DNA from: an uncultured Clostridia bacterium
GTDB lineage: Bacteria; Bacillota; Clostridia; Oscillospirales; CAG-382
Assembly (NCBI GenBank): GCA_947628695.1
Contig: CANRAV010000003.1
Location: 1-64,000 of the forward strand
Length of the DNA stretch: 64,000 nucleotides
Reading direction: 5' to 3'
In this document: piece by piece, positions 7,613 to 46,113 of the stretch
Layout: every line of letters starts with the position of its first letter
How positions within the stretch are numbered: the first letter of the stretch is position 1
Notes under the pieces: generated by a model
Database searches by the model: none
What the model was told of the DNA's origin: nothing
What the model saw: the letters and a program-made list of their open reading frames with translations, nothing else
Made by a program: the position numbers and the translations under genes

Positions 7613-7620
7613 TCTTGAGT

Positions 7621-7773
7621 TTACGCCTTTTCAAAGGCGGACTTGTCAAGCCCGCAGACGGGGCAGGTAAAGTCGTCCGGAAGGTCCTCCCACTTCGTGC
7701 CGGGAGCTATGCCGTTCTCGGGGTCGCCCTTTTCCTCGTCATACTCGTACCCGCAGGGACATATGTACTTCAT
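7621..7773 (-). CDS. rubredoxin with a shortened first iron knuckle
   Basis: A 50-residue electron carrier. The second knuckle CPVCG and the core motifs [20 protein letters not shown] are typical. The first knuckle reads I-C-P-C-G-Y-E-Y, a C-x-C in place of the usual C-x-x-C, one residue short. Four Cys ligands for a mononuclear FeS4 site are still present. It is the last gene of an Rrf2-reverse rubrerythrin-rubredoxin set, 11 bp after rubrerythrin, so it likely donates electrons to that peroxidase. Ribosome site AGGAGAGG precedes the ATG. Confidence 0.88.
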
Positions 7774-7784
7774 AAAGCCTCTCC

Positions 7785-8788: not shown

Positions 8789-8826
8789 GCGCGCCTCCAA
8801 ATAATATACCTAAATGGTGTGTTTTT

Positions 8827-8855
8827 ATTATATCCCTTTTATGCCGTCTTGTCAA
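8827..8855 (-). promoter_or_regulatory. consensus promoter of the Rrf2-rubrerythrin operon
   Basis: Minus-strand TTGACA (8855-8850), 17-bp spacer, TATAAT (8832-8827): a perfect SigA consensus. The downstream stretch with ACCATTTAGGTATATTA could hold the repressor site. Confidence 0.8.
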
Positions 8856-8890
8856 GGGCTTTTTGCGAAAATTTTATCCTTATTATTATA

Positions 8891-8919
8891 TTGACAAGGC
8901 GCGCTGCGGCTGGTATAAT
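8891..8919 (+). promoter_or_regulatory. consensus promoter of the flavodiiron gene
   Basis: TTGACA 8891-8896, 17-bp spacer, TATAAT 8914-8919, again perfect. The two divergent promoters share about 35 bp between their -35 boxes, which invites joint control. Confidence 0.85.
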
Positions 8920-8951
8920 TTTAAACAGAATATTATATGAGGAGTGAGTGC

Positions 8952-28372: not shown

Positions 28373-28381
28373 GCAGGAATT

Positions 28382-30535: not shown

Positions 30536-32710
30536 TCAAACCTCCATCTGTGTGGAAAGGAACATAGCGCCGGTGGAGATAAGCTTCTTCTCGGCGTCGT
30601 TGGGACTTTCGCCCTTCTGCTTCTGCAGCGACATCACCGCGCCTATCACGTTGCCCTCGGCAACTATCGGCGACATATAGGACACAAGCTCCGGTCGATC
30701 CTCGGTCACCTCAAGCTCTGCGCCTGCGCCTTGCTCGCAGCTGTAGCTTTGGCGGCGTTCTATCGCCTCGAAAAGCGGTTGGCTTATGGGTTTTTCAAGC
30801 AGATCCTTCTTCGGCACGCCCGCAACGGCCACTATCGTGTCGTTGTCGCATATCGCAACCGGAATGCCGCTGCTTTTGTTTATCGCCTCCGCAAACTGGT
30901 TGGTGAACATCCCCACCTCGCCTATGGGCGAGTACTTCTTGAATATCACTTCCCCGTCCTTGTCCGTGAATATCTCAAGCGGCTCGCCGCTGCTGATAAC
31001 ATTGACGCCATAGACCTTGTCCGGACGGTGTGCGCTCGTCTGGACTGCGCGGGTCTGTACGATACCTATGACGCCCGAATTAAAATTTGCGGCTTCCTCC
31101 TCGTTTTCTTCGGGCAGCGCGCCGCTTTGCAGGATACATTCTATATCGGGTTTCAGCTTGATGTGAATGTGATCTTCATAAACGTAAATGCGCTCCACCA
31201 GCAATTCCAAGTCGCGCTTATCGAGACGGTCGTGTTCGAGGATCTCGTCGAAGATCCCCAGCGCGGTGGATGCGATGCGGTTGACGCGGATGATCGTGTT
31301 GCGCTTGTCGGCGGTGAGGGCGATTTGATTTTCCAGCCCTGCCGCCCGCAGTCGGCACTCGTCGATCAACTCACCGTAGGTTTCTTCGATCTGCGCCTCT
31401 TCTTCCGGCTTTCGCATCACCTCGCGGGTCTTTTGCCGGATAAGGACTTTCAGCTCCTCCTTTGCATCGGCAAGCTGCCGTTCCAAAATGGAAATCGTTT
31501 CCCGGTTCTGTTTTTCGGCACAGGACTCGTCGGCAATTTGCTTTTCCAGCTTTTGGATCATCTCTGCCGAGCCGTCCCGCACCTTGCGGAGGTATTCTTT
31601 GAGCACCTCATCCAGCACGTCTACCCGAATGTGGTGGCTGGTGCAGCCCTTCAGCCCCCGCCTGTGATACGTGCCGCAGCGGTAGGCTTCCTTTAAGTCC
31701 TTGCGGCTCATGGGGAACATGGGACTGCCGCAGTCGCCGCACTCCATCAGCCCCGAATAGACGTTGTCGTATTTGCGCACGCCGCGATAATTGCCGGTAG
31801 AGCGGACTTTCAGCGCCTGTTTGGTGACGGCGAAGGTCTTATAGTCCACGATTGCCTCGTGGTGGTTTTCAAAAACGATATGCTCGTCCTGCTCCCGTTT
31901 CACGTCGCCGCCGTTGATTTTTTTGCGGGTGTATTTGCCCTGCCGCAGGGTGCCGATGTAAAAATCGTTCTGCAAAATGCCCTGCACCGTGGCGATGCTC
32001 CATTCCGCCCTCGCCTTGATTTTGCAGTCCTCGCCCCGGGCTTCCTTTCGCGTGCGCTCGTTCATGCGGGGCGTGGGAATGTGCTTGTCGGTCAAATGCT
32101 CCGCGATCCGCTTGTAGCCCAAGCCTTCGTTATACAGCGAAAAAATCTCCCGCACCACCTCCGCCTCGGTGGGTTCCGGCTCAAAGGTCATGGTTTTGGA
32201 GTTGGTAATTACGTAGCCGTAGGGCACGGCGCAGATCCATTTTCCGTCCTCCTGCCGACGCTTGATGACCGAGCGCACCTTCTTGGACGCGTCGGTCACC
32301 GGCATTTCGTTGACGAGAAAACGGAACTGGATCGCCGTCCAGTCGTCGTAGGTGGGATAGTCGATGCTGTCGCCGATGGAGATGATCCGCAGCCCCGCGT
32401 CCCGCAGATCCTCCAGCTCCACCAGCCCCCGACTGTTGCGGCGGGAAAAACGGGAAAAGTCCTTGATGACAAGGACGTCGTATCCGTGATTCATCAGCAT
32501 CGGCCGCATGGCCTGATACCCCTCCCGCTGCTCGAAGGTATATCCCGACCGGTCGCGATCCTCGTAAAAGGTCAGATTCGATCCGGGAAAGGCGCGGGAT
32601 ACATAGTCCTTTATAATGGATTTTTGGTTTTCAATCGAGGTGTTGTCGCGGTCGAGCTCCTCGTCCACCGAAATGCGGCAATATCCCGCGATTTGAAATG
32701 GTTCGCTCAT
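30536..32710 (-). CDS. large serine recombinase fused in frame to the SpoVT C-terminal GAF domain
   Basis: 724 residues. Residues 1-575 are a large serine recombinase: YCRIS with catalytic Ser14, the DFSRFSR helix, a Recombinase domain (about 160-290), a zinc ribbon (CGDCG...CGTYH...GC near 320-352) and a coiled coil. From about residue 576 (PLEIFTDKDGEVIFKKYSPIGE to the end, STQMEV) the protein is the C-terminal part of SpoVT, with its YSPIGE segment and GAF fold (AICDNDTIVAVAGVPKK). The join coincides with the predicted attachment site. The ATG follows GGAGATAACGCC. In the excised circle the same gene would end with the 28-residue tail now attached to SpoVT at 46.0 kb. Identification of both parts is confident; activity of the chimera is unknown. 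Confidence 0.93.
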   Translation of the reverse strand: MSEPFQIAGYCRISVDEELDRDNTSIENQKSIIKDYVSRAFPGSNLTFYEDRDRSGYTFEQREGYQAMRPMLMNHGYDVLVIKDFSRFSRRNSRGLVELEDLRDAGLRIISIGDSIDYPTYDDWTAIQFRFLVNEMPVTDASKKVRSVIKRRQEDGKWICAVPYGYVITNSKTMTFEPEPTEAEVVREIFSLYNEGLGYKRIAEHLTDKHIPTPRMNERTRKEARGEDCKIKARAEWSIATVQGILQNDFYIGTLRQGKYTRKKINGGDVKREQDEHIVFENHHEAIVDYKTFAVTKQALKVRSTGNYRGVRKYDNVYSGLMECGDCGSPMFPMSRKDLKEAYRCGTYHRRGLKGCTSHHIRVDVLDEVLKEYLRKVRDGSAEMIQKLEKQIADESCAEKQNRETISILERQLADAKEELKVLIRQKTREVMRKPEEEAQIEETYGELIDECRLRAAGLENQIALTADKRNTIIRVNRIASTALGIFDEILEHDRLDKRDLELLVERIYVYEDHIHIKLKPDIECILQSGALPEENEEEAANFNSGVIGIVQTRAVQTSAHRPDKVYGVNVISSGEPLEIFTDKDGEVIFKKYSPIGEVGMFTNQFAEAINKSSGIPVAICDNDTIVAVAGVPKKDLLEKPISQPLFEAIERRQSYSCEQGAGAELEVTEDRPELVSYMSPIVAEGNVIGAVMSLQKQKGESPNDAEKKLISTGAMFLSTQMEV
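30980..31009 (-). other. attachment site at the recombinase end
   Basis: Core CGGCTCGCC at 30980-30988 (minus strand GGCGAGCCG) with predicted crossover dinucleotide at 30984-30985. The element-side arm 30986-31009 is the imperfect inverted copy of the arm at 45995-46018 (about 18 of 24 positions agree). Confidence 0.75.
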
Positions 32711-32752
32711 GGCGTTATCTCCTTTGCCATGTATTTTTTACTCTATTCATCA

Positions 32753-32817
32753 ACAATGTTTCTTTAATATTGCTTGCATCGATAACATTGTATCATAAAT
32801 TTCTCGAAAAAGCAAGA
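32753..32817 (-). promoter_or_regulatory. recombinase promoter with inverted-repeat operator
   Basis: Minus-strand TTGCTT (32817-32812), 17-bp spacer, TACAAT (32794-32789). ACAATGTT (32753-32760) and AACATTGT (32786-32793) form an inverted repeat overlapping the -10 box. The same AACATTGTT-like core occurs in the operator at 34.1 kb. Confidence 0.55.
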
Positions 32818-32860
32818 GCCGAAGTGTGACTTTTATGTAACGGATGCGCACGGCATCCGC

Positions 32861-33109
32861 TCATCGGAGGGGGCGTTCGTCCTTAATCTGCTCCTTTGCC
32901 TTTTTCTCGCAGTGGTGCTTCATCAGCCCGTACAGACAGTCTTCGGGATTTTCCGCACCCGATTCCATCACCACGGGCAAATACCCCTGCGCTTTCCATA
33001 CCGCGTATTGCGGCTTCAGCGATTGCAGCAGCGCTTCGTCCTTCCCCTCCTCTCGACTCAGCCAGACAAACGCCGCCCGAATCGGTTTCTCCTTCACTTC
33101 GACCCGCAA
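32861..33109 (-). CDS. 82-residue small protein beside the recombinase
   Basis: Starts at a TTG preceded by AAGAGGTGAGAGC and runs MRVEVKEKPIRAAFVWLS through YAVWKAQGYLPVVMES to KKAKEQIKDERPLR. It is charged and soluble, with one cysteine in EDCLYGL and one in HHCEKK. It is transcribed in the same direction as the recombinase, 150 bp upstream. No family recognised. Its position and size would suit a recombination directionality factor or regulator, but that is inference only. Confidence 0.5.
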   Translation of the reverse strand: MRVEVKEKPIRAAFVWLSREEGKDEALLQSLKPQYAVWKAQGYLPVVMESGAENPEDCLYGLMKHHCEKKAKEQIKDERPLR

Positions 33110-33481
33110 GCTCTCACCTCTTTCTCTTTCATTCTTGCCATTTTTCGGAAAAATAGTCCGCTGCGATTCCTCCTGATTCTTTTTCAGAGGACGACAGTAG
33201 TTTGATTTTTGCGGAAATCTGTTTCAAGAAAAAAGAGGTGATTGTTTGATGAATACGTTAATGGGTCAATTCACCCAAACGGTAGGGGCATAACTTGGGG
33301 CGCAAGTAGGGGCATAAGTAGGGATCGATATGCCCCTACTTTTCGTTTGGAACCACGGGCCGACGTCCGCGTCAGACTTAAAAATCGGTCGGAAAACGTG
33401 GCGTGCAATTTCGTTTCCAATTTGTGCAACTTGGATTCTGGAAACGCCTCCCCTTTAGGATTCGTGATGGTAAAATGGGCT

Positions 33482-33552
33482 GGAATCGTTCTCGCTCCCG
33501 GTGGAATCGAACTCGCAAGGGGTAGAATCGAAGTTTTACTCGGCAAGAATCG
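33482..33552 (+). repeat. iteron-like array of four RGAATCG repeats
   Basis: GGAATCGTT at 33482, GGAATCGAACT at 33503, AGAATCGAAGTTTTACT at 33524 and AGAATCGAAGTTTACT at 33546. Spacing of 21, 21 and 22 bp puts them on one face of the helix. Confidence 0.55.
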
Positions 33553-33843
33553 AAGTTTACTATGGTTTTACCCCGAATTTACGACCCTCTATCATAAAAT
33601 CCTAAAAAATGACCCTCTCTTCGAAACGAACCAAATTTCGAGAGTTTTTTGTTATGACTACCGTTTTCGGACGCTCGCTTTCTTTCAAAAAATTCAGTCA
33701 AAAAGTGGGGCAGAGGAAATTCATTTTTCAAGGCTCTTTTTTTGACTGAAAAAGGCCCCTTTTCAATGACAAAGAAAATGAGGTTCTTTCCGATATGACA
33801 AGAGGGAAATCCCCCCTGCTCTCGAAATGAGGGAGCAGGCTAG

Positions 33844-33941
33844 TCATAACGAAGAGGAAATCATGCCGAAGAGAGCCTGACTTCCGAGGGGAGAGTCCCC
33901 CTCATATCGAAACGAGAGGCGGCAATCATATCGAAAGGAAC
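33844..33941 (+). repeat. degenerate TCATAxCGAA repeats
   Basis: TCATAACGAAGAGG (33844), TCATGCCGAAGAGAG (33861), TCATATCGAAACGAGAG (33902) and TCATATCGAAAGGAAC (33926), direct repeats with irregular spacing. Confidence 0.45.
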
Positions 33942-34061
33942 GCCATAAATCCAAGACAAATCCAATATGAATCCGACTGCTTTTTAAATGATTGTCATTT
34001 TTCATTTGAAAATGAGCGTGGTTTTTCTTCCCGTTAGCACATAGAACAAACAAAAGAGCAT

Positions 34062-34137
34062 TCTATCGGAACAATATCAAAATTTGTTTGACATTGTTCC
34101 GATAGATATTGATTTTATTCTTGAAATCTAGTATACT
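34062..34137 (+). promoter_or_regulatory. promoter and 14-bp inverted-repeat operator of the AAA/nuclease gene
   Basis: TCTATCGGAACAAT (34062-34075) and ATTGTTCCGATAGA (34093-34106) are perfect inverted copies with centres 31 bp apart. They lie directly upstream of TTGATT (34109-34114), a 17-bp spacer and TATACT (34132-34137). This fits a tightly controlled promoter with a dimeric regulator on two half-sites. Confidence 0.75.
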
Positions 34138-34166
34138 ATACGCAGTACATGTGAGGAGGTGCGACC

Positions 34167-36029
34167 GTGGCAAACACCATGTCCGCAAAAGAGGCCGCTG
34201 CCCTTTGGAATATCAGCGAACGCCGTATTTCGACGCTCTGCAAAGAGGGGCGCATTGCAGGGGCGAAAAAAGACGGCAGGAATTGGATCATTCCCACCGA
34301 TGCAGAAAAACCGGCAGACAAACGAGTCAAGACGGGAGCCTATCGAAAAACCGTCCGAAAAACGGCGCTACCGCTGCCGGTAGGCGTGTCCGATTATCGC
34401 TTGGCGTCCACCGAATATTATTACGTCGACAAAACCATGATGATCAAGGATTTTCTCGACGAAAAGCCGATGGTGTCCCTGTTTACCCGTCCCCGTCGGT
34501 TTGGAAAAACGCTGAATATGGATATGCTTCGCACCTTTTTTGAAAAGGCCGATGAAGACACCTCCGTATATTTCAAGGACAAAAAGATTTGGGTCTGCGG
34601 CGAGAAATACCGCGTCTGCCAGGGCAAATATCCGGTGATCTTCATCACCTTTAAGGACATCAAGTTCAACACTTGGGAAGAAACCTTTGAGGCCATACGA
34701 GACGTTTTTTCCAAAGAAGCAGCCCGCCATATCGAGCTACAAACTTCCGACAAATGCAACGAATATGAAAAGAAAGCGTTTGAAAACCTGCTTGCGGGAG
34801 ATGTGAGCGAGGTCGAGCTTTCCGGCGCACTTTTGAATCTTTCGGGAATGCTCCACAAGCATCACGGCGTCGCGCCCATTATTATCATTGACGAATACGA
34901 TATCCCGATCCAGCAAGGTTACATGAGAGGTTACTACGATAACGTGATCCTTTTTATGCGAAACCTTTTCTCCGGCGGATTGAAGGACAACAAACACCTG
35001 TCATACGGGTTCCTTACGGGCATTCTCCGCGTGGCAAAGGAAAGCATTTTCAGCGGACTGAATAATTTGACCATTCACTCCGTGCTGGATAACAAGTATA
35101 GTTCCTATTTTGGGTTCACCTCCGAGGAGGTCAAGGAAATGGCGGCATATTACGGCGTTTCCGACAAATACGAGGAGCTATGCGAGTGGTACGACGGCTA
35201 TCGTTTCGGCAAGACCGAGATCTTCAATCCATGGTCGGTGATCAACTATTTCAACAACGAATGTGAGCCGCGCGCCTTTTGGCAGTCCACCGGCAGCAAC
35301 GACATCATCGGCGAGGTCATCGCGGAGGCGGACCGGGAAATCTACGAAAGGCTGACCTCTCTTGTCAACGGGGAATCTTTTACGACCTATATTGACACGG
35401 GCGTGATTTACCCGCAGATCAAAAACGATCCGTCCACAATTTACAGTTTCCTGCTGGTGGCGGGTTACCTGAAAGTGCTGAAAACCACGCCATCGTTCAA
35501 CGGAGATTTTATGTGCGAGGTGGCGCTGCCGAACAAGGAAATCGCCCTTGTCTACCACAAGGAAATTTTGCAGAAGCTGAACGACATCATTCCGCAGCCC
35601 GTCGCCATATCCATTCAGGAAGCGATCTTCTCCGGCGATCAGGACAGGCTAAAAGATCTGATCCAAACGCTGCTGACCCAGTCGGTCAGCGCCTTTGACA
35701 CAGCGGGCGAAAATTTCTATCACGGCTTCATGCTCGGCCTTTGTGCCTTGCTTGGCGGGGCGTTTGTCTCTTCTAATCGGGAGTCCGGCGACGGCAGATA
35801 TGACATTCAGCTACGGCCCACAAAGAAAAACCTGCCCGGCATTATAATTGAGCTGAAAGCCGCCAAAAAATGCTCGGACGCGGAGCTGAAACGCCTGTCA
35901 GAAGCCGCGCTGCAGCAGATTATCGACAAAAAATATGACACCGAACTCACCATCGCAGGCGTCAAAACCGTATATAAATACGGCGTCGCGTTCAGCGGAA
36001 AACGGGTCGCGGTGACAATGGGACAGTAA
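34167..36029 (+). CDS. AAA-ATPase-like / PD-(D/E)XK nuclease protein with N-terminal HTH
   Basis: 620 residues starting at a GTG preceded by GAGGAGGTGCGACC. Residues 1-55 form a MerR/excisionase-like helix-turn-helix (SAKEAAALWNISERRISTLCKEGRI...NWIIP). An AAA-ATPase_like domain (about 70-350) has the P-loop variant TRPRRFGKTLNMDML, the Walker B strand PIIIIDEYDIP and EWYDGYRFG. The C-terminus (about 530-600) has the nuclease core GRYDIQLRPTKK...IIIELKAAK. AAA-ATPase_like/DUF1703 proteins are widespread and poorly understood, some linked to mobile elements. The HTH fusion suggests it may bind its own inverted-repeat operator. Location in the element points to defence or element maintenance. 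Confidence 0.8.
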   Translation: MANTMSAKEAAALWNISERRISTLCKEGRIAGAKKDGRNWIIPTDAEKPADKRVKTGAYRKTVRKTALPLPVGVSDYRLASTEYYYVDKTMMIKDFLDEKPMVSLFTRPRRFGKTLNMDMLRTFFEKADEDTSVYFKDKKIWVCGEKYRVCQGKYPVIFITFKDIKFNTWEETFEAIRDVFSKEAARHIELQTSDKCNEYEKKAFENLLAGDVSEVELSGALLNLSGMLHKHHGVAPIIIIDEYDIPIQQGYMRGYYDNVILFMRNLFSGGLKDNKHLSYGFLTGILRVAKESIFSGLNNLTIHSVLDNKYSSYFGFTSEEVKEMAAYYGVSDKYEELCEWYDGYRFGKTEIFNPWSVINYFNNECEPRAFWQSTGSNDIIGEVIAEADREIYERLTSLVNGESFTTYIDTGVIYPQIKNDPSTIYSFLLVAGYLKVLKTTPSFNGDFMCEVALPNKEIALVYHKEILQKLNDIIPQPVAISIQEAIFSGDQDRLKDLIQTLLTQSVSAFDTAGENFYHGFMLGLCALLGGAFVSSNRESGDGRYDIQLRPTKKNLPGIIIELKAAKKCSDAELKRLSEAALQQIIDKKYDTELTIAGVKTVYKYGVAFSGKRVAVTMGQ

Positions 36030-36056
36030 AAATGGGATAAAATAAGGAGTGGTATT

Positions 36057-37520
36057 ATGGACAATCAAGTGCATAATCAAATAGTAAATTTTATATGGGG
36101 AATCGCAGATGACTGCCTGCGCGACGTGTATGTGCGTGGCAAGTATCGTGATGTTATCCTGCCAATGACTGTTATCCGCCGTCTGGATGCCATGCTGGAA
36201 GAGACGAAACCTGCAGTACTGGCAATGAAGAAGCAGCTTGATGCTGCAAAAATCGATAACCAGTGGCCTGCGCTGTGCAATGCAGCGGGACAGGCTTTCT
36301 GCAATGCGTCTCCCTTCCTTCTGAAGGATTTGACCAACCGCTCCAAAGCGCAGACTTTGAAGGCGGACTTTATCGCATATCTTGATGGCTTTTCTCCAAA
36401 TGTTCAGGTGATACTGGATAAATTCAAGTTCCGAAATCAGATTGACACGATGGTGGATGCGGATATTCTTGGAGCTGTGATTGAGAAGTTCACATCTTCT
36501 GATATCAATCTGAGCCCAAACCCGATATATAAAGATGCGGCGCAAACCATCCTAAAACATCCCGGCCTTGATAATCACGGCATGGGCACAATCTTTGAGG
36601 AACTGATCCGCAAGTTTAATGAGGAGAACAACGAGGAAGCCGGAGAACACTGGACGCCTCGTGATGTTGTCGAGCTCATGGCTGACCTTGTGTTTATGCC
36701 AATTGCTGACAAAATCAAAGACGCTTCCTATTCCTGCTATGATGGAGCCTGCGGTACCGGAGGTATGCTTACGGTTGCACAGGACAGGCTTCTGACGCTT
36801 GCTCACAGACGCGGCAAGGATGTCTCAATCCATCTTTTCGGACAAGAAATCAATCCGGAGACTTATGCGATCTGCACGGCTGATATGCTGCTGAAAGGTG
36901 ATGGTGAAGAAGCTGAGCATATCATGTACGGCTCTACACTTTCCGACGATCAACACGCATCCCGTCAGTTTGACTTCATGCTCTCAAATCCGCCTTACGG
37001 CAAGAGCTGGAAGACCGATGCCGAGAAGATGGGCGGCAAGAAGGAAATCCTCGATACGCGCTTCAGCACCTATCTTGAGGGTGGGGATGTCATGCCGATG
37101 ATTCCGCGTACCAGTGACGGGCAGCTTCTGTTCCTTCTGAATAATGTTGCAAAGATGAAAAAGGACACAGAGCTCGGCAGTCGTATCGCTGAGGTACATA
37201 ATGGCTCGTCAATTTTTACAGGCGATGCTGGAAGTGGTGAGAGCAATGCACGCCGCTATCCGATTGAAAACGATCTGGTAGAGGCCATAATCGCTGTACC
37301 TGAGAATATGTTCTACAACACGGGCATAGGTACATTCATTTGGATTCTTTCAAACAAGAAGGAAGAACGTCGCAAGGGTAAGATCCAGCTAATTGATGCC
37401 ACGGCAATGAAATCACCGCTTCGCAAGAACATGGGTAAAAAAACTGCGAGTTTACACCTGAAATCCGTAAAGAGATCGTTCGACTTTTCCTTGAAATGGA
37501 AGAAAACGATGTCAGTATGA
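36057..37520 (+). CDS. hsdM: type I restriction-modification methyltransferase HsdM, frameshifted near the end
   Basis: 487 residues in this frame. An N-terminal helical HsdM_N region (about 1-165) precedes the adenine N6-methyltransferase domain with motif I DGACGTGGML (about 228-237) and motif IV SNPPYGKSW (about 309). The protein would methylate the adenine of the target chosen by HsdS. The last 26 residues (TASLHLKSVKRSF...) are out of frame: a run of seven A's (37437-37443) where eight are needed for KKNCEFTPEIRKEIV. ATG preceded by AAGGAGTGGTATT. Confidence 0.88.
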   Translation: MDNQVHNQIVNFIWGIADDCLRDVYVRGKYRDVILPMTVIRRLDAMLEETKPAVLAMKKQLDAAKIDNQWPALCNAAGQAFCNASPFLLKDLTNRSKAQTLKADFIAYLDGFSPNVQVILDKFKFRNQIDTMVDADILGAVIEKFTSSDINLSPNPIYKDAAQTILKHPGLDNHGMGTIFEELIRKFNEENNEEAGEHWTPRDVVELMADLVFMPIADKIKDASYSCYDGACGTGGMLTVAQDRLLTLAHRRGKDVSIHLFGQEINPETYAICTADMLLKGDGEEAEHIMYGSTLSDDQHASRQFDFMLSNPPYGKSWKTDAEKMGGKKEILDTRFSTYLEGGDVMPMIPRTSDGQLLFLLNNVAKMKKDTELGSRIAEVHNGSSIFTGDAGSGESNARRYPIENDLVEAIIAVPENMFYNTGIGTFIWILSNKKEERRKGKIQLIDATAMKSPLRKNMGKKTASLHLKSVKRSFDFSLKWKKTMSV

Positions 37521-38062
37521 TCTTTGACAATGATGAGTTTGCTTATTGGACAATTACAGTTGAGAGGCCGCTTCGATTGCGCGTATATCCTGAAAGAGAG
37601 ATTCCGGCTGATACATTTAAAAAGGCTGATGAACTCGCGACTGTCAAAAAGGCAATTGCATCTGTTCCGGCTGGCACTCCGCTTGATGACTGGACAGCCT
37701 TTGCCGCTGCGACAAAACTAAAGAAAGGACAACTAAATAAGATTCGCCCGCTTATCACAGAGAAAGATCCGACAGCTCAACCTATTGAAGGTGAAGCAGA
37801 TGCCGATCTGCGCGATACGGAAAACGTGCCATTCACATATGAAGGTGGAATCGATGCATTCATGAAGAATGAAGTGTTGACATATGCATCGGAAGCTTGG
37901 GTAGACGAGAAGAAGACTCAGATTGGTTATGAGATAAGTTTTACGAAGTATTTTTACAAGCCTGTAGAGATGCGCGACATGAATGAGATTATTTCTGCAC
38001 TGAACACCCTTGAAAATGAAGCTGCTGGAATGGTTGCAGAAATTGTGGGAGGCGCAGAATGA
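37496..38062 (+). pseudogene. hsdM: HsdM C-terminal fragment in the shifted frame
   Basis: The correct continuation starts near 37444 (NCEFTPEIRKEIVRLFLE) and an ATG at 37496 could start a 188-residue piece, MEENDVSMIFDNDEFAYWTITVERPLRLRVYPE, matching the normal HsdM C-terminus, including GYEISFTKYFYKPV. Ends in a TGA that overlaps hsdS by 4 bp. A separate C-terminal peptide would lack the catalytic motifs. Whether the two pieces complement, or one base is missing in the read, is open. Confidence 0.8.
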
Positions 38063-39411
38063 ACAAATACTCAAGTTATGTAGAAAGCCCTTTGCCGTGG
38101 CTCCCTCATATACCGTCGCATTGGGAGCTGGTAAGGAATAAGAATATTTTTACAGAAACCAAAGATACAGTCGGGAGTGATTCAGAAAACTATGTATTAC
38201 TCTCGCTAACGCTGAAAGGAATAATTCCGAGAGATGTTGCTTCTGGGAAGGGCAAATTCCCGAAAGATTTTGATGCCTATAAAGTTGTTCGACAAGGCGA
38301 TATGGCGTTTTGCTTATTTGATATAGATGAGACTCCGCGAACGGTTGGTTTGTCTGCGTATGACGGTATGCTGACGGGTGCATATACTATTTTCCATATT
38401 GATAACGTCAATCCTCGATATGCGTACTATTATTATCTTGCTCTTGACAATGTGAAGGCAATGAAACCGCTATATAGCGGCTTGAGAAAAACCATAAATG
38501 TCAATACATTTTTGGACACAAAGTTCCCAATGCCGCCACGAGGAGAACAAGATCAGATTGTAAGATTCCTCGATTGGAAAGTATCTAAAGCCAATGCGCT
38601 AATTAATATTAAGAAGAAGGAAATTAAGAGTATTGAGTCACTCAAGCATTCTGCGGTTAGCGACGCCGTAACGCATGGACTAACTGTGGATATACCTATG
38701 AAATACAGCGGTGTCAGATGGCTTGGTGATATCCCGGCACATTGGACTACTATTAAGTTACGCCAGCTTTTAAGTCCTGTAAGCGAAAAGAACCATCCAG
38801 AGCTCCCGCTTCTGTCTGTGGTCAGAGAGCAGGGTGTCATTGTACGCGATGTCGATGATAAGGAAGCAAACCACAATTACATACCAGATGATTTGAGTGG
38901 CTATAAGATGGTCAAAAAAGGTCAATTTGCCATGAACAAAATGAAAGCATGGCAAGGGTCATATGGCATCTCGGATTACACAGGCATTGTAAGCCCTGCG
39001 TATTTTATCTTTGATGTGGCATTTGATAACCTTGAATATTTCCACTATGCCATCAGGAGCAAAGTGTATGTGAATTTTTTTGCACAGGCCTCGGACGGTA
39101 TACGTGTAGGACAATGGGATCTCCAAATGGACAAGATGAAGGAAATTCCATTTATTGTTCCGCCTGCGGATGAACAAATTGCAATCGTGGAACATATAAA
39201 AAAGACTCTTCCAAAGTATGACGAAGCGATTGAAAAGTTAAAAGCAGAGGTGGCGGTACTTGAAGAGTACAAAGCCAAGCTGATCGCCGATGTTGTTACC
39301 GGTAAAGTAGATGTCCGGAATGAAGCAATACCGGATTATGAGTTTGTAGATGAAGAGACTGATTCCGAGGATGATGGAGAAGGCGATGAAATTGAGGAAC
39401 AGGAGGATTGA
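38059..39411 (+). CDS. hsdS: type I restriction specificity subunit HsdS
   Basis: 450 residues with two target-recognition domains. Each ends in the conserved helical spacer motif: PPRGEQDQIVRFLDWKVSKANALI near 160 and PPADEQIAIVEHIKKTLPKYDEAI near 380. TRD1 opens WLPHIPSHWELV and TRD2 opens WLGDIPAHWTTI, a shared pattern from internal duplication. It determines the DNA target. ATG overlaps the hsdM fragment stop. A long acidic tail follows the last helix. Confidence 0.92.
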   Translation: MNKYSSYVESPLPWLPHIPSHWELVRNKNIFTETKDTVGSDSENYVLLSLTLKGIIPRDVASGKGKFPKDFDAYKVVRQGDMAFCLFDIDETPRTVGLSAYDGMLTGAYTIFHIDNVNPRYAYYYYLALDNVKAMKPLYSGLRKTINVNTFLDTKFPMPPRGEQDQIVRFLDWKVSKANALINIKKKEIKSIESLKHSAVSDAVTHGLTVDIPMKYSGVRWLGDIPAHWTTIKLRQLLSPVSEKNHPELPLLSVVREQGVIVRDVDDKEANHNYIPDDLSGYKMVKKGQFAMNKMKAWQGSYGISDYTGIVSPAYFIFDVAFDNLEYFHYAIRSKVYVNFFAQASDGIRVGQWDLQMDKMKEIPFIVPPADEQIAIVEHIKKTLPKYDEAIEKLKAEVAVLEEYKAKLIADVVTGKVDVRNEAIPDYEFVDEETDSEDDGEGDEIEEQED

Positions 39412-39413
39412 CA

Positions 39414-42332
39414 ATGGCTTTTACCAACACAAAGGAAAGCGGCCTTGAATCCTTAATCGTGAAGTGGCTGGTTGAGCAGAACGGGTACGAGGAAGGAACA
39501 AACGCCGACTATAACAAAGAATATGCTGTCGACGAGACGCGCCTTTTCCGGTTCCTGCAGGACACGCAGCCGAAGGAAATGGACAAGCTGGGCGTGTTCA
39601 CTTCTGATACGAAAAAGCGGCAGTTCCTAAACCGCTTGTCCGGAGAGATCGCCAAGCGCGGCATTATCGATGTACTGCGCAACGGCGTGAAGGTTTATCC
39701 GGCAGACCTCATCATGTTCTACCTGACGCCTACCGAGAATAACGAGCAGGCCAGAATCATGTATGAGAAGAATATCTTCAGCGTGACACGGCAACTGCGT
39801 TATTCACAGGATGCCGGGAAACTGGCTCTGGATGTTTGCCTGTTCATCAACGGCCTTCTGATTATCACAATGGAGCTGAAGAATCAGCTCACAAAGCAGA
39901 ACACGGAAAACGCTGTCCGCCAGTACAAGGAAGACCGCGATCCGCATGATCTCCTGTTCTCATTCAAGCGCTGCATGGTTCATTTTGCCGTAGATGATGC
40001 CACGATTCAGTTCTGCACGAAACTTGCTGGTAAGGATAGCTGGTTCCTGCCGTTCAATAAAGGCTATAACGACGGCGCAGGAAATCCGCCGAATCCGGAT
40101 GGCCTTATGACAGACTACCTTTGGAAGGACATCCTTACCAAGAGAAAACTGTCTCGCATTATAGAAAATTACACGCAGGTCATCGAAGAGGTGGACGAGG
40201 ATACCAAGAAGAAGTCCATCAAACAGATCTGGCCTCGTTATCATCAGCTCGATTGCGTGGAGAAGCTGCTGGCCGATGTGCAGGAGAATGGCGTCGGCAA
40301 ACGCTATCTGATCCAGCATAGCGCCGGAAGCGGCAAGTCAAACTCTATCGCATGGCTGGCGCATCAGCTGATTGGGCTTGAAAAAGACGGCCACCCGATG
40401 ATCGATTCTGTCCTTGTGGTTACTGACCGCCGTATTCTGGATATGCAGATCCGCAATACTATCAAGCAGTTCATGCAGGTCAAAAACACCGTTACATGGG
40501 CAGAGCATTCAGACGATCTACGCAAGGCTATACAGGACGGCAAGCGCATCATTATATCTACGATTGAAAAGTTCCCGTACATTATCTCTGAGATTGGACA
40601 GGAACATAAGAACAATAAGTTTGCAATCATCATCGATGAGGCACACTCTGGACAGAGCTGGCGCAACTCCGCAAATATGAATTTGGCACTTTCCGGTCTT
40701 GCCACAGACGATGAGGCAGATAATGAGGACAAGATCAATGCCATGATAGAGGGTCGCAAGCTCGTCTCTTCAGCCAGCTACTTTGCCTTCACTGCCACGC
40801 CGAAGAACAAGACCGAGGAGATGTTCGGTGTTGCCTATGAGGAGGATGGTGAAATCAAACATCGCCCATTCCATGTATATACGATGAAGCAGGCCATTCA
40901 GGAAGGTTTCATTCTTGATGTGCTGCGGAACTATACAACCATCGACAGCTGGTACAAGATCATGAAAACGGTCGAGGACGATCCAATGTTTGACAAGAAG
41001 CGTGCGCAGAAGAAGTTGCGTGCCTTTGTCGAAGGCAATCCGGACGTCATCGCAAAGAAAGCCGCCATGATGGTGGAGCATTTCCATGAGCAGGTCATAG
41101 CCAAGAAAAAGATCGGTGGCAAAGCTCGTGCGATGGTAGTCACCGCAAGCATTCCGAGATGTATCGAATACTATTATGCAATCAATAAGTGCCTCGCTGA
41201 TAGGCATAGTCCTTATAAGACCATCGTGGCCTTTTCCGGCGAGCATAAGTATAACGGTCAGGAACCGGCATTGACGTCGGCTGCTATGAATGGATTCCCG
41301 GATGCCAAGATTCCGAAGGAGTTCAAAAAAGATCCGTATAGGATACTTATCGTTGCTGACATGTTCCAGACTGGCTTTGACGAGCCACTGCTGCAGACAA
41401 TGTATGTGGACAAGCCACTTTATGATATTGCTGCGGTACAGACACTTTCCCGTTTGAACAGAGCGCATCCCGGCAAGGATGAAGTATATGTTTTGGACTT
41501 TGCAAACAAAACTTCTGTGATTGAAGAGGCGTTCTCGAAGTTCTACAGAACAACGATTCTTTCCGGAGAAACCGATCCCAACAAGCTGTACGACTTGATT
41601 ACCATTATGGCGGAGTATCAGGTCTACGATGACAGTGATGTTGAAAAGCTGGTAGATCTTTTCCTGAGTGGCGCTGAACGTGACCGCCTCGATCCGATTA
41701 TGGACGCCTGCGCAGCTGTATATAAACAGCTCGAACTGGACGATCAGATTAAGTTCAAGAGTGCTGCTAAGTCGTTCGTGCGTACATACGGTTTCCTTGG
41801 TGCAATTCTTCCTTACGGAAATGTTGAATGGGAAAAGCTGTCGATCTTCCTGAACTTGCTGATACTGAAACTCCCATTGCCGCGTGACGATGATCTTTCG
41901 GAAGGTATTCTTCAAACCATTGACCTGAGCAGCTATCGCAATGAGGCGCAGGAGGCTATTGCAATCAAACTGGAAGATGCCGATACAGAGATCGCGCCAG
42001 TACCCGCAGGCAAGGTCGGCCATATCGTTGAGCCGGAAATGGACCTGCTTTCCAAGATCATCATGGACTTCAACGACATGTTCGGAAATATAAACTGGAA
42101 CGATGCAGACAATGTGCAGCGTCAGATTCTGGCCATCCCGGAGATGGTGTCAAAGGATAAGAAGTATCAGAACGCCATGAAGAATTCGGATGAGCAGGAA
42201 GCTCGGACCGAAAGTGAAAGAGCACTACAGCAGGTTATCTTCTCTATTATGGCGGACAATATGGAGCTATTCAAACAGTTCCAAGACAATCCGTCGTTCA
42301 AGAAGTGGTTGTCTGATTGGTACTTCATTTGA
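39414..42332 (+). CDS. hsdR: type I restriction endonuclease subunit HsdR
   Basis: 972 residues. An HsdR N-terminal nuclease domain has the core LALDVCLFINGLLIITMELKN near residues 137-157. A superfamily-2 translocase follows with Walker A HSAGSGKSNSI (about 300), the TDRRILDMQ segment and the DEAHSGQSW box (about 407), then MFQTGFDEPLLQTMYVDKPL. It cuts unmodified DNA after ATP-driven translocation. The ATG at 39414 has AGGAGG 7 bp upstream; the TTG two codons earlier overlaps the hsdS stop. Intact, unlike hsdM. Confidence 0.93.
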   Translation: MAFTNTKESGLESLIVKWLVEQNGYEEGTNADYNKEYAVDETRLFRFLQDTQPKEMDKLGVFTSDTKKRQFLNRLSGEIAKRGIIDVLRNGVKVYPADLIMFYLTPTENNEQARIMYEKNIFSVTRQLRYSQDAGKLALDVCLFINGLLIITMELKNQLTKQNTENAVRQYKEDRDPHDLLFSFKRCMVHFAVDDATIQFCTKLAGKDSWFLPFNKGYNDGAGNPPNPDGLMTDYLWKDILTKRKLSRIIENYTQVIEEVDEDTKKKSIKQIWPRYHQLDCVEKLLADVQENGVGKRYLIQHSAGSGKSNSIAWLAHQLIGLEKDGHPMIDSVLVVTDRRILDMQIRNTIKQFMQVKNTVTWAEHSDDLRKAIQDGKRIIISTIEKFPYIISEIGQEHKNNKFAIIIDEAHSGQSWRNSANMNLALSGLATDDEADNEDKINAMIEGRKLVSSASYFAFTATPKNKTEEMFGVAYEEDGEIKHRPFHVYTMKQAIQEGFILDVLRNYTTIDSWYKIMKTVEDDPMFDKKRAQKKLRAFVEGNPDVIAKKAAMMVEHFHEQVIAKKKIGGKARAMVVTASIPRCIEYYYAINKCLADRHSPYKTIVAFSGEHKYNGQEPALTSAAMNGFPDAKIPKEFKKDPYRILIVADMFQTGFDEPLLQTMYVDKPLYDIAAVQTLSRLNRAHPGKDEVYVLDFANKTSVIEEAFSKFYRTTILSGETDPNKLYDLITIMAEYQVYDDSDVEKLVDLFLSGAERDRLDPIMDACAAVYKQLELDDQIKFKSAAKSFVRTYGFLGAILPYGNVEWEKLSIFLNLLILKLPLPRDDDLSEGILQTIDLSSYRNEAQEAIAIKLEDADTEIAPVPAGKVGHIVEPEMDLLSKIIMDFNDMFGNINWNDADNVQRQILAIPEMVSKDKKYQNAMKNSDEQEARTESERALQQVIFSIMADNMELFKQFQDNPSFKKWLSDWYFI

Positions 42333-42408
42333 CTTACAACAAGGAAGGAAAACCTTACGAAAGCTTATAAAAAACAAAATGCCAATTTGTATTTATAGGA
42401 GAATAAAC

Positions 42409-45400
42409 ATGATGAACAGCGCTGAAGTGATTCAACGTCACGTTAAAACACATACGGAACGATCTGCCGAAGACCGTTCTGCTGTTTCCGTTTTAGAATC
42501 TTTTTTAAGGTCTGACGGGAGAATCAATCCGCATTTTTCCAGTACAGACAGCTGGCCAAATACGGATGGGACGTTTGAGTTTGTGGAAAATCCGAATATC
42601 AGCCGCCGGCCAAGTCAAAACCTATTTGTGCAAATAAAGGGAACAACCTGTTATTCAGAAGTTGATGGAAAAATCAAATACTGTCTGAAAAGTCTGGCGT
42701 TCCCCGCTTTTGCCTATCAGCCCGTTACATTTGATCCCTGTATTTTATTTGTAGTACTCCACCCGGACAATCGAGGAATGGAACGAGTGTTTTGGAAATA
42801 TATGTCGGTTAGCTTTTTGAACGACATAGATTTTGGAAAAGAAAGTGTAACGATTTCTTTTTCTTCAGAAGAAGAAATTAAAAATACGGATGAAAGTGTG
42901 GAACGGTTTTGTGAAGAACTCATTGATATTATTGATCGACATGCCTTTATCAGAGAGCTGAACAATTCGAGCTATTCCAAAAAAGATGCAGTTGAAATTA
43001 TCAAGTCCTGCAATCAACAAATCACAGAAAGCATTGACCGGATGGATATCTGCAATGATACGCGTGATAACATTTCAAGGCGAATTTTAACTCGTTTAAA
43101 AGATCTTTGCAAAGCAACACTTATATTGAATGCATTAAGCCACAATCAGGACAAAGTGAGCCTTAGTCTGGCATGGGAACAATCATTGCTGGATATACGC
43201 ACCAAGTATTTAGGAGCTTTTTTGAAATCTCTTAAATATATAGGAGGACGTATCCCCGACGAAGGGCAGGCGGAACGCCTAATGTTGAAATATTATGAAT
43301 TTCTTTGGCAAATCAGAGATTTCTTAAAGAAAAAATATGGAATATCGGTATTGCATAATTTAGAAAGATTCCCACGAAATCAGGAGGACCCTGCTGATGA
43401 GGAGTATTATAAAGCAGTTGCTCAAATAATAGAAAATACCCCTTGTTATGTTGAAAAAGCCAGCCATGACCGCTATTACATTCAGAAAAAAGCATCGTTC
43501 TTTGTTGGAACTGAGCGGTATTATGAGATAACATTGCAACTGGCGGGAATATATGCTACGAAATATAACCGAATCACGGTTTATACCAAAGAGAATATTT
43601 CTACAAACTACTCCATTGAGATATCCTATCAAGAAGTTCCTATAAAATTGTGGGATGTTCCATCGGAAATCAAAATCATATCCGGTTGGAAAGTATCAAT
43701 TGAGCCGACGTGCCTGAATAAGTTGACAAAAATTCTGTTTTGTTTTTCTGCTAAGCTTAGTTCAAATTACGGAGAATATGCGGCACTTATGAATTTTTTA
43801 ACTGCTACGGGTATTGATCTTTTGTCTTTGATTGATTTAAGGGAACTTCAGTTTCATGATATTGTCAATCAGATTTATCAAAACTGCAATACTGCTTGTT
43901 TTAAGGATGTCCTTCTTTACCTGAGAAAAAATTTCACAGAAGGTTCAAAAAGCGTTGGATACAACACGATAAGATATTTATTGATCGAATTAAAAGAAGA
44001 AACGCTGGAGAATGTAATGGTTTCACAGTTTGCTCCAAAATGTTTATGCGATCAATTTCTTCTATCTACGAAATGTATCCCGTTTGAACGGAATCCTTTT
44101 ATCTCTAATCTTCCCGGCAGTCGAACAAACGAAATTGGAAATTTGAAAAATATATTAAAAGCCGCGGGCGACAGTAAACTGGATGAAATGAGTCCGTTTA
44201 TAAAATTGAAAAGCTTGATACGGCAAAATTGTGAAATATATTTTGACGAAGCAATTTTTTCAGAAGGATCTATTGATAAATTCAATGAAAGTCTCAGTGA
44301 TTGGGAGCTGAAAAACGGATATAAAATCAAAAGAGAAAACGGATTTGTCTGTATTGATTTTTATGAAGAGGATACTTTGTTTATTATTAAAAAGCTTTTG
44401 GAACTGTCGTCTATTGGCAACAAAGGACAAGAAGCATTTAACCGGCAATTTGTGAAACGCCAGGAAAATAATATTACGGATCCGTTGAAAAAACAGGCTC
44501 TGACAACTGCTTTTGTGAATTCCCGTATTTTGTTGATATACGGTGCTGCTGGAACCGGCAAAACGACTTTGATTAATTATCTTTCCAATATGATGAATGA
44601 TCGAAGTAAGCTGTTTTTAACGAAGACACATACAGCGCTACAAAATTTGAAAGCTCGTATTGACAATCCTGGAACAGAACATGATTTTATCAGTATTGAC
44701 AGCTTTACGCGCAAAGTAAATTTGAAAGATTACGATGTCATCTTTGTTGACGAATGCAGTACGATTGACAATCGCACGATGAGAAGATTGTTGAGCAAAA
44801 TCAACGAGGATTCTTTTCTGGTTTTGGCGGGGGATACTTATCAGATTGAATCAATCGATTTTGGAAATTGGTTTTCTTATGCGAAAGAATTGGTAAAGGC
44901 GCCAGGTGTCAATGTGGAGCTTCTGACCACATGGCGAACCGAAAAGCAAGAACTCATCAATTTGTGGGACGAAGTTCGAAACAAAGGGATGATAACTGAA
45001 AAACTCGTCTTTGAGGGACCGTTTTCTGAAAAAATCGGGGAAAATATTTTTCATAGAGAGGAAGAAGACGAAGTTATATTGTGCTTGAACTATGACGGGA
45101 AGTTTGGTTTGAACAACATTAATAAATATTTCCAGAGCCTAAATAAGCAAAGCGAAGCTTTTGAATGGCAAGAATGGAAGTACAAAATCGGTGATCCGAT
45201 TCTTTTCAGTAATGCACCTCGATTTCCCATGTTCTATAATAATTTGAAAGGGAGAATCGCCGACATAAAAAAAGACAATCACAGCATTACATTTACCGTA
45301 GATATAGGGACTATTTTGACAGAAAGTCACTTTTCCGGAACAGACGTTGAATATATTGATACGTTTGGCGAAGAAACGCGCGTTCGGTTTACGGTATATC

Positions 45401-45720
45401 AATATGATCCAAAGGCTCCGGCTGAAAAGCAGGACGAAATGCGGCTGCGCACGGTTATTCCGTTTCATCTTGCTTATGCAGTATCAATCCATAAGGCTCA
45501 AGGTTTGGAATTTAACTCGGTAAAAATTCTTATTCCTTCTGCCAATGCCGAAAAAATAACGCACGGCATCTTTTATACCGCGATTACAAGAGCCAAAGAA
45601 AAGTTAAAAATCTTTTGGTTCGATGAAACGATGCAGCAGGTAATTCGCGGGTTTTATGAAACAAATCAAGACCGCAAGAGCTTAGATATTGTGAAGTCTA
45701 AAATCAAACAAACATCTTAA
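42409..45720 (+). CDS. DUF4365-like domain fused to a superfamily-1 helicase
   Basis: 1103 residues, starting at an ATG with AGGAG 7 bp upstream. The N-terminal about 170 residues (RSAEDRSAVSVLESFLR...NTDGTFEF...NLFVQIKGT) resemble DUF4365, a PD-(D/E)XK-like nuclease fold. A long helical middle follows. The C-terminal third is an SF1 (RecD/Pif1/UvrD-type) helicase with Walker A IYGAAGTGKTTLIN (about 710), Walker B VIFVDECSTID (about 780), LAGDTYQIESI, LLTTWRT, SIHKAQGLEFNSVKI and FYTAITRAKEKLKIFW. Clearly AT-richer than hsdR, so it was probably acquired separately. Sits after hsdR in the element; likely an anti-phage nuclease-helicase. No exact known system recognised. Confidence 0.75.
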   Translation: MMNSAEVIQRHVKTHTERSAEDRSAVSVLESFLRSDGRINPHFSSTDSWPNTDGTFEFVENPNISRRPSQNLFVQIKGTTCYSEVDGKIKYCLKSLAFPAFAYQPVTFDPCILFVVLHPDNRGMERVFWKYMSVSFLNDIDFGKESVTISFSSEEEIKNTDESVERFCEELIDIIDRHAFIRELNNSSYSKKDAVEIIKSCNQQITESIDRMDICNDTRDNISRRILTRLKDLCKATLILNALSHNQDKVSLSLAWEQSLLDIRTKYLGAFLKSLKYIGGRIPDEGQAERLMLKYYEFLWQIRDFLKKKYGISVLHNLERFPRNQEDPADEEYYKAVAQIIENTPCYVEKASHDRYYIQKKASFFVGTERYYEITLQLAGIYATKYNRITVYTKENISTNYSIEISYQEVPIKLWDVPSEIKIISGWKVSIEPTCLNKLTKILFCFSAKLSSNYGEYAALMNFLTATGIDLLSLIDLRELQFHDIVNQIYQNCNTACFKDVLLYLRKNFTEGSKSVGYNTIRYLLIELKEETLENVMVSQFAPKCLCDQFLLSTKCIPFERNPFISNLPGSRTNEIGNLKNILKAAGDSKLDEMSPFIKLKSLIRQNCEIYFDEAIFSEGSIDKFNESLSDWELKNGYKIKRENGFVCIDFYEEDTLFIIKKLLELSSIGNKGQEAFNRQFVKRQENNITDPLKKQALTTAFVNSRILLIYGAAGTGKTTLINYLSNMMNDRSKLFLTKTHTALQNLKARIDNPGTEHDFISIDSFTRKVNLKDYDVIFVDECSTIDNRTMRRLLSKINEDSFLVLAGDTYQIESIDFGNWFSYAKELVKAPGVNVELLTTWRTEKQELINLWDEVRNKGMITEKLVFEGPFSEKIGENIFHREEEDEVILCLNYDGKFGLNNINKYFQSLNKQSEAFEWQEWKYKIGDPILFSNAPRFPMFYNNLKGRIADIKKDNHSITFTVDIGTILTESHFSGTDVEYIDTFGEETRVRFTVYQYDPKAPAEKQDEMRLRTVIPFHLAYAVSIHKAQGLEFNSVKILIPSANAEKITHGIFYTAITRAKEKLKIFWFDETMQQVIRGFYETNQDRKSLDIVKSKIKQTS

Positions 45721-45892
45721 ATCATATTGTGGTGTAATGATAAATCGTCGCGAAAGTGTGTTATTTTTTTGGGAATCTATCATAACGGACGCGAAGCTGT
45801 TTGACTAAAGTGGATTAGGATTAAGTCACAGAAAAAGCAGTCAGTAAGATGTTCAAAACTTGTACGGCGAAGGGATTCATTAGAGCAAACGC

Positions 45893-45930
45893 AAGTCAGC
45901 CGATTGAGAATTTTCCCAATCGGCTGACTT
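45893..45930. terminator. strong hairpin at the right end of the element
   Basis: AAGTCAGCCGATTG (45893-45906) pairs perfectly with CAATCGGCTGACTT (45917-45930). It lies just after the stop of the SpoVT N-terminal remnant, which would be the recombinase stop in the excised circle. The 170 bp before it hold no gene. Confidence 0.65.
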
Positions 45931-45933
45931 CCT

Positions 45934-46113
45934 TTATGTACCCCACCCCATTCGTTCGGCGAGCTTCAGCATTCCGAAAACGAATGAATCCGACGGTGTC
46001 AACGTTATCTGCGACGGGTCGCCCTCGCGGATGCGCATGGTGCGGCGTATCTCCTTCGGGATTACTACCCTGCCAAGGTCGTCTATTCGTCTTACAATGC
46101 CTGTTGCTCTCAT
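45934..46113 (-). CDS. spoVT: SpoVT N-terminal fragment with element-encoded tail
   Basis: 59 residues. MRATGIVRRIDDLGRVVIPK through TMRIREG is the N-terminal half of the AbrB-type swapped-hairpin DNA-binding domain of SpoVT. At codon 32 the sequence leaves SpoVT and continues as PSQITLTPSDSFVFGMLK...MGWGT, encoded by the element. Only about 31 of the roughly 50 residues of the DNA-binding domain remain, so it should be inactive. ATG preceded by AAAGGAGATTTATATA. SpoVT controls late forespore genes and spore dormancy in Bacillus and Clostridium. The missing half lies at 30536-30983. Confidence 0.93.
   Translation of the reverse strand: MRATGIVRRIDDLGRVVIPKEIRRTMRIREGDPSQITLTPSDSFVFGMLKLAERMGWGT
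45995..46023 (-). other. attachment site at the SpoVT N-terminal end
   Basis: Core CGGGTCGCC at 46015-46023 (minus strand GGCGACCCG), predicted crossover dinucleotide at 46019-46020 (minus GA), and the element arm at 45995-46018. Confidence 0.75.

What the first reader, a model, noticed from the sequence alone, without database searches (positions are those of the whole stretch)
30536..46113. spoVT is split by a 15-kb recombinase element: a candidate sporulation-gene intervening element
The SpoVT DNA-binding half (codons 1-31) lies at 46019-46113 and the GAF half at 30536-30983, both on the minus strand, 15.0 kb apart. Joining them across the shared core gives 543 nt, a 180-residue protein of normal SpoVT length with no frame break. 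Known elements of this class interrupt sigK (skin), spoVFB and spsM, and excise during sporulation. I do not know of one described in spoVT. Excision would act as a developmental switch for late forespore gene control.
Basis: partly seen in the sequence, partly recalled or inferred. Interest (0 to 1): 0.95.

Follow-up and report, generated by a model that had tools for sequence, protein, structure and literature searches.

The report
Mobile element splits forespore gene spoVT
A 15-kb DNA element sits inside the spore-formation gene spoVT of this bacterium, its recombinase gene now runs in frame into the back half of spoVT, and the same recombinase-spoVT junction occurs in more than a hundred other genome records; the element is predicted to cut itself out to rebuild spoVT when spores form, which would happen in the cell that becomes the spore.

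Summary
spoVT is cut at codon 31/32 by a 15,035-bp element; both ends share GGCGA inside an inverted repeat, and rejoining gives a 180-aa SpoVT. The held assembly (87% complete) has no other spoVT. The GAF half is not free-standing: it is the C-terminus of a 724-aa serine recombinase whose frame crosses the junction. In 30 of 30 such genomes searched, spoVT is not intact. Recombinase and host half are shuffled between species, so the element is mobile. One natural free-form recombinase with its own tail was found (P0121). GAF halves are never truncated (108 of 108). Fourteen relatives carry small cassettes at the same codon with a whole spoVT beyond them. SpoVT works in the forespore, the germ line, unlike the mother-cell targets of skin-type elements. 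Excision, its timing and re-integration are inferred, not shown. Main rival: an ordinary integrative element that breaks a dispensable gene.

The parts
30984..46023 (.). whole element with its two GGCGA core copies (15,035 bp core to core), G+C 0.458 against 0.542 for the rest of the window
46019..46113 (-). spoVT codons 1-31 plus core (DNA-binding half)
45934..46018 (-). element end read in frame after the spoVT N half; by inference the 3' end of the recombinase gene in the circular form
46019..46023 (-). att core GGCGA, N-half side (attR)
45998..46009 (.). right arm of the att inverted repeat (minus strand GATAACGTTGAC)
30995..31006 (.). left arm of the att inverted repeat (minus strand GTCAATGTTATC)
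30984..30988 (-). att core GGCGA, GAF side (attL)
30536..30988 (-). spoVT 3' part (GAF half)
30536..32710 (-). serine recombinase fused in frame to SpoVT GAF, 724 aa, junction at residue 575
32861..33109 (-). 82-aa protein of a family found upstream of 46 of 55 such recombinase genes; proposed directionality factor (untested)
34167..36029 (+). HTH, AAA-ATPase_like, PDDEXK_9 protein
36057..37520 (+). type I methyltransferase HsdM, first part
37496..38062 (+). ORF overlapping the end of hsdM in another frame; no Pfam match, probably the rest of HsdM (inference)
38059..39411 (+). type I specificity subunit HsdS
39408..42332 (+). type I restriction subunit HsdR
42352..45720 (+). helicase of candidate defence family PDC-S53 (start chosen by me inside the longer ORF 42190-45720)

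Best explanation
A mobile element with a large serine recombinase lies in spoVT at codon 31/32, its recombinase frame now ends in the SpoVT GAF domain, and it likely excises during sporulation, which would rebuild spoVT and give the recombinase its own tail back. Shown by sequence: the insertion, the shared core with inverted arms, the fused frame, the clean empty-site reading, the recurrence in many genomes, the shuffling between hosts, and one natural free-form recombinase. Inferred: attP spans the 3' end of the recombinase gene, so each integration grafts the host GAF onto the recombinase and each excision removes it; a small upstream protein may set direction; excision is timed to sporulation. 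Because SpoVT is a forespore regulator, excision would have to happen in the cell that becomes the spore, so the element would have to re-integrate later or be inherited as a circle. In this window the cargo is a type I restriction system and a candidate defence helicase.
For: att core, inverted arms and 180-aa empty-site reading; fused 724-aa ORF; no other spoVT in the own assembly; junction in at least 118 records: 73 with 450 or more recombinase residues in frame, 40 open but cut by an edge; 30 of 30 searched carriers lack an intact spoVT; GAF half 151-163 aa in 108 of 108 with a stop; dN/dS 0.00-0.11 in the 11 closest pairs of a 75-fusion set; hosts and recombinases shuffled; natural free form P0121; spoIVA over cut-off in 27 of 31 carriers; best solved recombinase match is SPbeta YokA; SpoVT is needed for mature spores in C. 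difficile (PMC3789822 passages).
Against: No excision is shown; attP was not found in viral contigs or held loci and the free form rests on one protein among 6 candidates. 12 of 30 carriers showed no N half, gap or loss. Over all 109 fusion GAF halves some pairs have dN/dS up to 0.69 at pS 0.30-0.45, and distant pairs have medians of 0.42-0.52 against 0.13-0.15 in intact genes; pS is near saturation there, but relaxed selection is possible. spoIVA was not found in 4 of 31 carriers. The forespore setting makes simple excision costly to the element.
Confidence: 0.6

Rival explanations
1. An ordinary integrative (mobilizable) element uses spoVT as a landing site in hosts that can do without it; no developmental excision occurs and the read-through into GAF is a by-product of where attP lies.
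For: Relaxases in L201 and L036, MobC/NikA in L210; a review says serine-recombinase IMEs disrupt genes dispensable for the host (PMC5704250 passages); 12 of 30 carriers without an N half; 4 of 31 without spoIVA; raised dN/dS in distant GAF pairs.
Against: GAF half never truncated in 108 of 108; dN/dS 0.00-0.11 in close pairs, some of which descend in the fused state; N halves read in 13 split loci keep the full conserved sequence up to the core with few changes; 27 of 31 carriers keep spoIVA.
Confidence: 0.3
2. The recombinase-GAF fusion is itself the selected product: the SpoVT GAF acts as a sensor on the recombinase, and spoVT as such is no longer used.
For: GAF kept under purifying selection while fused; GAF part modelled as a folded unit; fusing an RDF to the C-terminus of an integrase changes its direction (PMC5737554 abstract).
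Against: Each integration would have to recapture the domain; the frame match follows from one att position and needs no selection; N halves stay conserved in 13 split loci read.
Confidence: 0.07
3. Assembly or binning artefact.
For: Most records are metagenome bins (titles).
Against: Same junction in isolates (Ruminococcus flavefaciens 007c, Pseudoflavonifractor phocaeensis An858, Anaerotignum lactatifermentans DSM 14214), with both halves on one contig in the first two, and both halves in a 2.9-Mb contig (L201).
Confidence: 0.01

Closest known systems
skin elements in sigK (Bacillus subtilis, Clostridioides difficile)
   Same: A serine-recombinase element splits a sporulation gene; rejoining across a short core gives the whole gene (PMC10747680 and PMC5025042 passages)
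   Different: sigK acts in the mother cell; the papers describe prophage-like elements and a proven directionality factor in C. difficile; here a forespore gene, no phage genes found, recombinase frame fused to the target, excision unshown
gin element in gerE (Bacillus cereus ATCC10987)
   Same: Non-prophage island with restriction-modification genes and serine recombinase in a sporulation gene (PMC5595907 passages)
   Different: gin has three recombinase genes, 28.6 kb, mother-cell target, proven excision with GirC/GirX
SPbeta prophage in spsM and its integrase YokA/SprA
   Same: Best solved match to the recombinase part is YokA; developmental excision by a large serine recombinase (PMC4191935, abstract start seen)
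   Different: SPbeta is a full prophage; no fusion of integrase to the target gene is described in what I saw
Tn4451/TnpX and TndX type integrative elements
   Same: Same broad recombinase class (TnpX domain 2mhc; TndX about 28.6% identity); some spoVT elements carry mobilisation genes
   Different: Distant in sequence; not tied to a sporulation gene
Integrons (for the cassette forms in relatives)
   Same: Arrays of short units with one or a few ORFs at a fixed site
   Different: The sites are half of a serine-recombinase att behind a spoVT 5' copy; how the cassettes move is unknown
Engineered integrase-RDF fusions
   Same: Extra C-terminal domain on a serine integrase (PMC5737554 abstract; solved YokA-YotN fusion chain 9dxd)
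   Different: Here the added domain is a host GAF and no effect on direction is known

Membership tests
Sporulation-gene intervening element (skin type) | Splits a sporulation gene; joined halves give an intact frame | tested here: met
   180-aa joined SpoVT
Sporulation-gene intervening element (skin type) | Encodes a serine recombinase | tested here: met
   Pfam Resolvase, Recombinase, Zn_ribbon_recom
Sporulation-gene intervening element (skin type) | att sites with short direct repeat and inverted arms | tested here: met
   GGCGA cores and inverted arms
Sporulation-gene intervening element (skin type) | Recombination directionality factor | tested here: inconclusive
   small protein upstream of 46 of 55 recombinase genes; no family and no PDB fold match better than E 0.38; function untested
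Sporulation-gene intervening element (skin type) | Excised circular form | tested here: inconclusive
   one natural free-form recombinase P0121; attP not found in viral contigs or loci
Sporulation-gene intervening element (skin type) | Excision during sporulation rebuilds the gene | not testable with these tools
   needs cultures or reads
Integrative mobilizable element | Own relaxase or mobilisation genes | tested here: not met
   none among the 9 window ORFs scanned; present in relatives L201, L036, L210
Prophage | Phage structural genes | tested here: not met
   none among the 9 window ORFs scanned against Pfam; PHROGs not run; attL in 3 viral contigs only
Integron (cassette forms in relatives) | Tyrosine integrase and attC sites | not tested
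   not searched; layout resembles cassette arrays

The most novel reading that the evidence does not exclude
A germ-line developmental DNA switch: defence-carrying elements across gut Clostridia split the forespore regulator spoVT; integration grafts the host's GAF sensor onto the recombinase, which turns the enzyme to excision in the forespore, restores SpoVT and the recombinase's own tail, and lets the free-tailed enzyme re-integrate the circle after germination. A second line of small cassettes exploits the same codon by bringing a fresh spoVT 5' end, and sigG, another forespore gene, is hit by a different recombinase element.
Probability: 0.25. Interest if true: 0.96.

Novelty: new variant of a known kind. 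Interest (0 to 1): 0.85.

Why it matters
The published intervening elements I found listed sit in genes that act mainly in the mother cell, which dies, so losing the element there costs nothing. spoVT acts in the forespore. If the element excises there the change is inherited and the element needs a way back; that makes a reversible germ-line gene switch directly testable. It also shows a recombinase whose C-terminus changes each time it moves, a natural counterpart of engineered integrase-RDF fusions, and a widespread landing place for defence genes in gut Clostridia. It would bear on which gut anaerobes can form spores.

Tried and rejected
Prophage reading: not supported; no phage gene among the 9 window ORFs scanned against Pfam, attL in only 3 viral contigs; PHROGs was not run. 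Structure of the small upstream protein: modelled (mean pLDDT 76), no PDB match with E below 0.38. attP in viral contigs and held loci: none. P0004, a 611-aa recombinase without SpoVT_C, looked like a free form, but the middle of its sequence does not match its relatives and its end is unrelated; left out. My guess that P0004 lay in G033 was wrong. MT839487.1 stops a few bases before the att core, so it could not tell integrated from free. Cassette boundaries: the cassette shared by L043 and L045 is mostly 87-100% identical over cargo but 63-80% over the following spoVT 5' copy, so whether cassettes move by the recombinase or by homologous recombination between the copies is open. G440 first looked like a split sigG but is contiguous with a stop codon; dropped. 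The attR pattern misses the window's own site, so 32 of 394 is a lower bound. The first regex for the small upstream protein missed the window's own copy and was replaced by a profile built from 16 of the sequences, so the 46 of 55 include sequences it was built from.
Full report
What is there. On the minus strand spoVT starts at 46113 and runs for 31 codons to a GGCGA core at 46019-46023. It resumes at an identical GGCGA at 30984-30988 and ends at 30536. The 15,035 bp between are poorer in G+C (0.458 against 0.542). Joined across the core, the gene reads 180 codons. Codon 32 is GAG on the GAF side and GAC on the N side; the intact spoVT genes of three relatives of the same genus (L042, L043, L048) have GAA or GAG there, so the exchange most simply lies within GGCGA. 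The arms GTCAATGTTATC (31006-30995) and GATAACGTTGAC (46009-45998) form an inverted repeat around that core, the layout expected of a serine-recombinase attP (layout rule recalled).

The fused recombinase. The GAF half is not free-standing. The frame 30536-32710 encodes 724 aa: Resolvase, Recombinase and zinc-ribbon domains, then from residue 575 SpoVT. The closest solved chains are SpoVT itself (2w1t) over the end and SPbeta integrase YokA over the front. A model gives a folded GAF part (block pLDDT 74-89) joined by a low-confidence stretch at 573-593; overall pTM is 0.37, so domain placement is unknown. On the other side the spoVT N half reads on into element DNA and stops at 45934. Joining the recombinase to that tail gives a 603-aa free form. 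A search with such a tail returned 2 hits among 6 candidates; one, P0121, is a natural 597-aa recombinase ending in a homologous tail, the other a fusion. So attP lies inside the recombinase gene, and integration changes the enzyme's end. In 11 element tails the third codon position changes most (0.526 against 0.389 and 0.335), as for a coding tail; in 12 cassette tails the difference is small (0.477 against 0.426 and 0.416).

Spread. Of these 118, 73 have 450 or more residues upstream in frame with SpoVT, 40 have an open frame cut by a locus or contig edge, and 5 have only a short upstream frame. Record titles include Lachnospiraceae, Oscillospiraceae, Ruminococcus, Anaerotignum and Eisenbergiella. 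A protein search gave SpoVT_C fusions in 119 of the 120 listed hits, the query included, but its ranking favours fusions. I searched the genomes of 30 of the 118 for SpoVT: 30 of 30 have a GAF half and none has an intact gene; 18 of 30 have an N half, 10 of them on the same contig and strand, about 12-54 kb away; 12 of 30 show none (distances typed). Among 149 genomes near the window's, 6 (own included) have a GAF half in a frame over 700 aa, and by my count of the listed rows about 112 have a match over nearly the whole of SpoVT, three of those flagged with a stop.

Mobility and selection. In 75 fusions compared pairwise, recombinase and GAF disagree: L065/L095 97.8% and 57.7%, L163/L167 95.7% and 53.7%; the reverse in L160/L166, 48% and 98%. 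Elements therefore move between hosts and enter at the same codon. GAF halves are 151-163 aa in 108 of 108 with a stop. In that 75-fusion set the 11 pairs with GAF pS below 0.45 have dN/dS 0.00-0.11, and for several (for example L080/L139, L073/L145) the recombinase has diverged to a like degree, so they probably descend in the fused state. Over all 109 GAF halves the 21 pairs with pS 0.05-0.45 have medians 0.04 and 0.11 but a maximum of 0.69; more distant pairs have medians of 0.52 and 0.42, against 0.15 and 0.13 for 18 intact genes. pS is near saturation there, but relaxed selection is not excluded. N halves read in 13 split loci keep the conserved sequence up to the core with few changes.

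Cargo. The window element carries type I restriction-modification and a helicase of candidate defence family PDC-S53. Relatives carry a PbeC/DndD-like protein with a cysteine-desulfurase-like one (L225), a BrxP-like protein (L224), a type IIG enzyme (L206), a C5 methylase (L032), relaxases (L201, L036) and MobC/NikA (L210). A small protein family lies upstream of 46 of 55 recombinase genes that have 1.6 kb of upstream sequence, the window included; 16 of these sequences built the profile. I propose it as directionality factor, untested.

Cassettes. In 14 relatives an att arm follows a spare spoVT 5' end, and a whole spoVT (cut by the contig end in L050) lies further on; the stretches between were taken by hand as 20 intervals of 570-3,921 bp, and the longest ORF is antisense to spoVT in 14 of 20. 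Of 10 cargo proteins scanned, 5 gave Abi_2, Fic, UDG, DUF5655 and Imm32, and 5 gave nothing. The attR pattern, one mismatch allowed, hit 32 of 394 genomes of the order, with no hit for the reversed control; one genome has four sites. One cassette is shared by two genomes. How cassettes move is open.

Hosts and timing. The window genome has spoIVA over cut-off and a SigG-like gene of 385 bits, below the cut-off of 457; SigK-type hits are also below cut-off. Of 31 carrier genomes 27 have spoIVA over cut-off; SigG passes its cut-off in 1 of 31 although all have hits. In C. [quoted passage not shown] PMC10747680 (passages) lists sigK, spsM, spoVFB, gerE and yabG as interrupted genes, not spoVT; sigK, gerE and yabG are described there as mother-cell or sigma-K genes; for spoVFB and spsM the mother-cell role is recalled. 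Excision in the forespore would be inherited, hence the need to re-integrate or persist as a circle. This part is inference.

Literature. No paper in the held library has spoVT together with 'serine recombinase'; 19 have spoVT with 'recombinase' (listing read, and one of them, PMC3789822, by passages). The listings showed no title or abstract start that reports a spoVT or sigG element. Subscription papers and preprints are not held. Serine-recombinase IMEs are said to disrupt dispensable genes (PMC5704250, passages), which supports the rival. Fusing an RDF to an integrase favours attL x attR (PMC5737554, abstract), which makes a C-terminal graft a plausible control.

Verdict. A real, mobile, widespread spoVT-splitting element with an unusual recombinase-host fusion. 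That it is a developmental switch is likely but not shown.

Noticed in passing
L228 (sigG N half 8967-9263, recombinase 7591-8952; C half at about 1736-2221); L229 with L230 (G426); L231 (G439): sigG, another forespore gene, is interrupted after the FSTYAVP motif; in L228 and L229 a serine-recombinase-like ORF lies next to a sigG half. Three of 31 spoVT carriers; in L231 only the N half was found. No paper in the held library has sigG with 'intervening element' and 'sporulation'.
   Followed up: partly
L037 8990, L038 7585, L039 8000, L040 8996: Four relatives have a GAF half that breaks at the same codon but with a different DNA arm and no recombinase frame joined to it; perhaps another recombinase type or decayed elements.
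   Followed up: no
36057-38062: hsdM is in two overlapping frames (487 and 188 aa), so the type I system may be frameshifted, or this may be an assembly error.
   Followed up: no
46318-47739: Collagen-like Gly-X-Y repeat protein gene starts beside spoVT in the divergent direction.
   Followed up: no
28379-29758: SCIFF peptide maturase downstream of the GAF half; in G004 it lies on the same contig as the intact spoVT, about 12 kb away.
   Followed up: partly
L222 and L223 (Ruminococcus flavefaciens 007c): The two spoVT halves are about 54 kb apart, with ordinary-looking metabolic genes between them; a large element or a later rearrangement.
   Followed up: no
G442 C29:114265-114747 and C37:16246-16728: Two identical-scoring recombinase-SpoVT fusions in one genome; duplication or assembly redundancy.
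   Followed up: no
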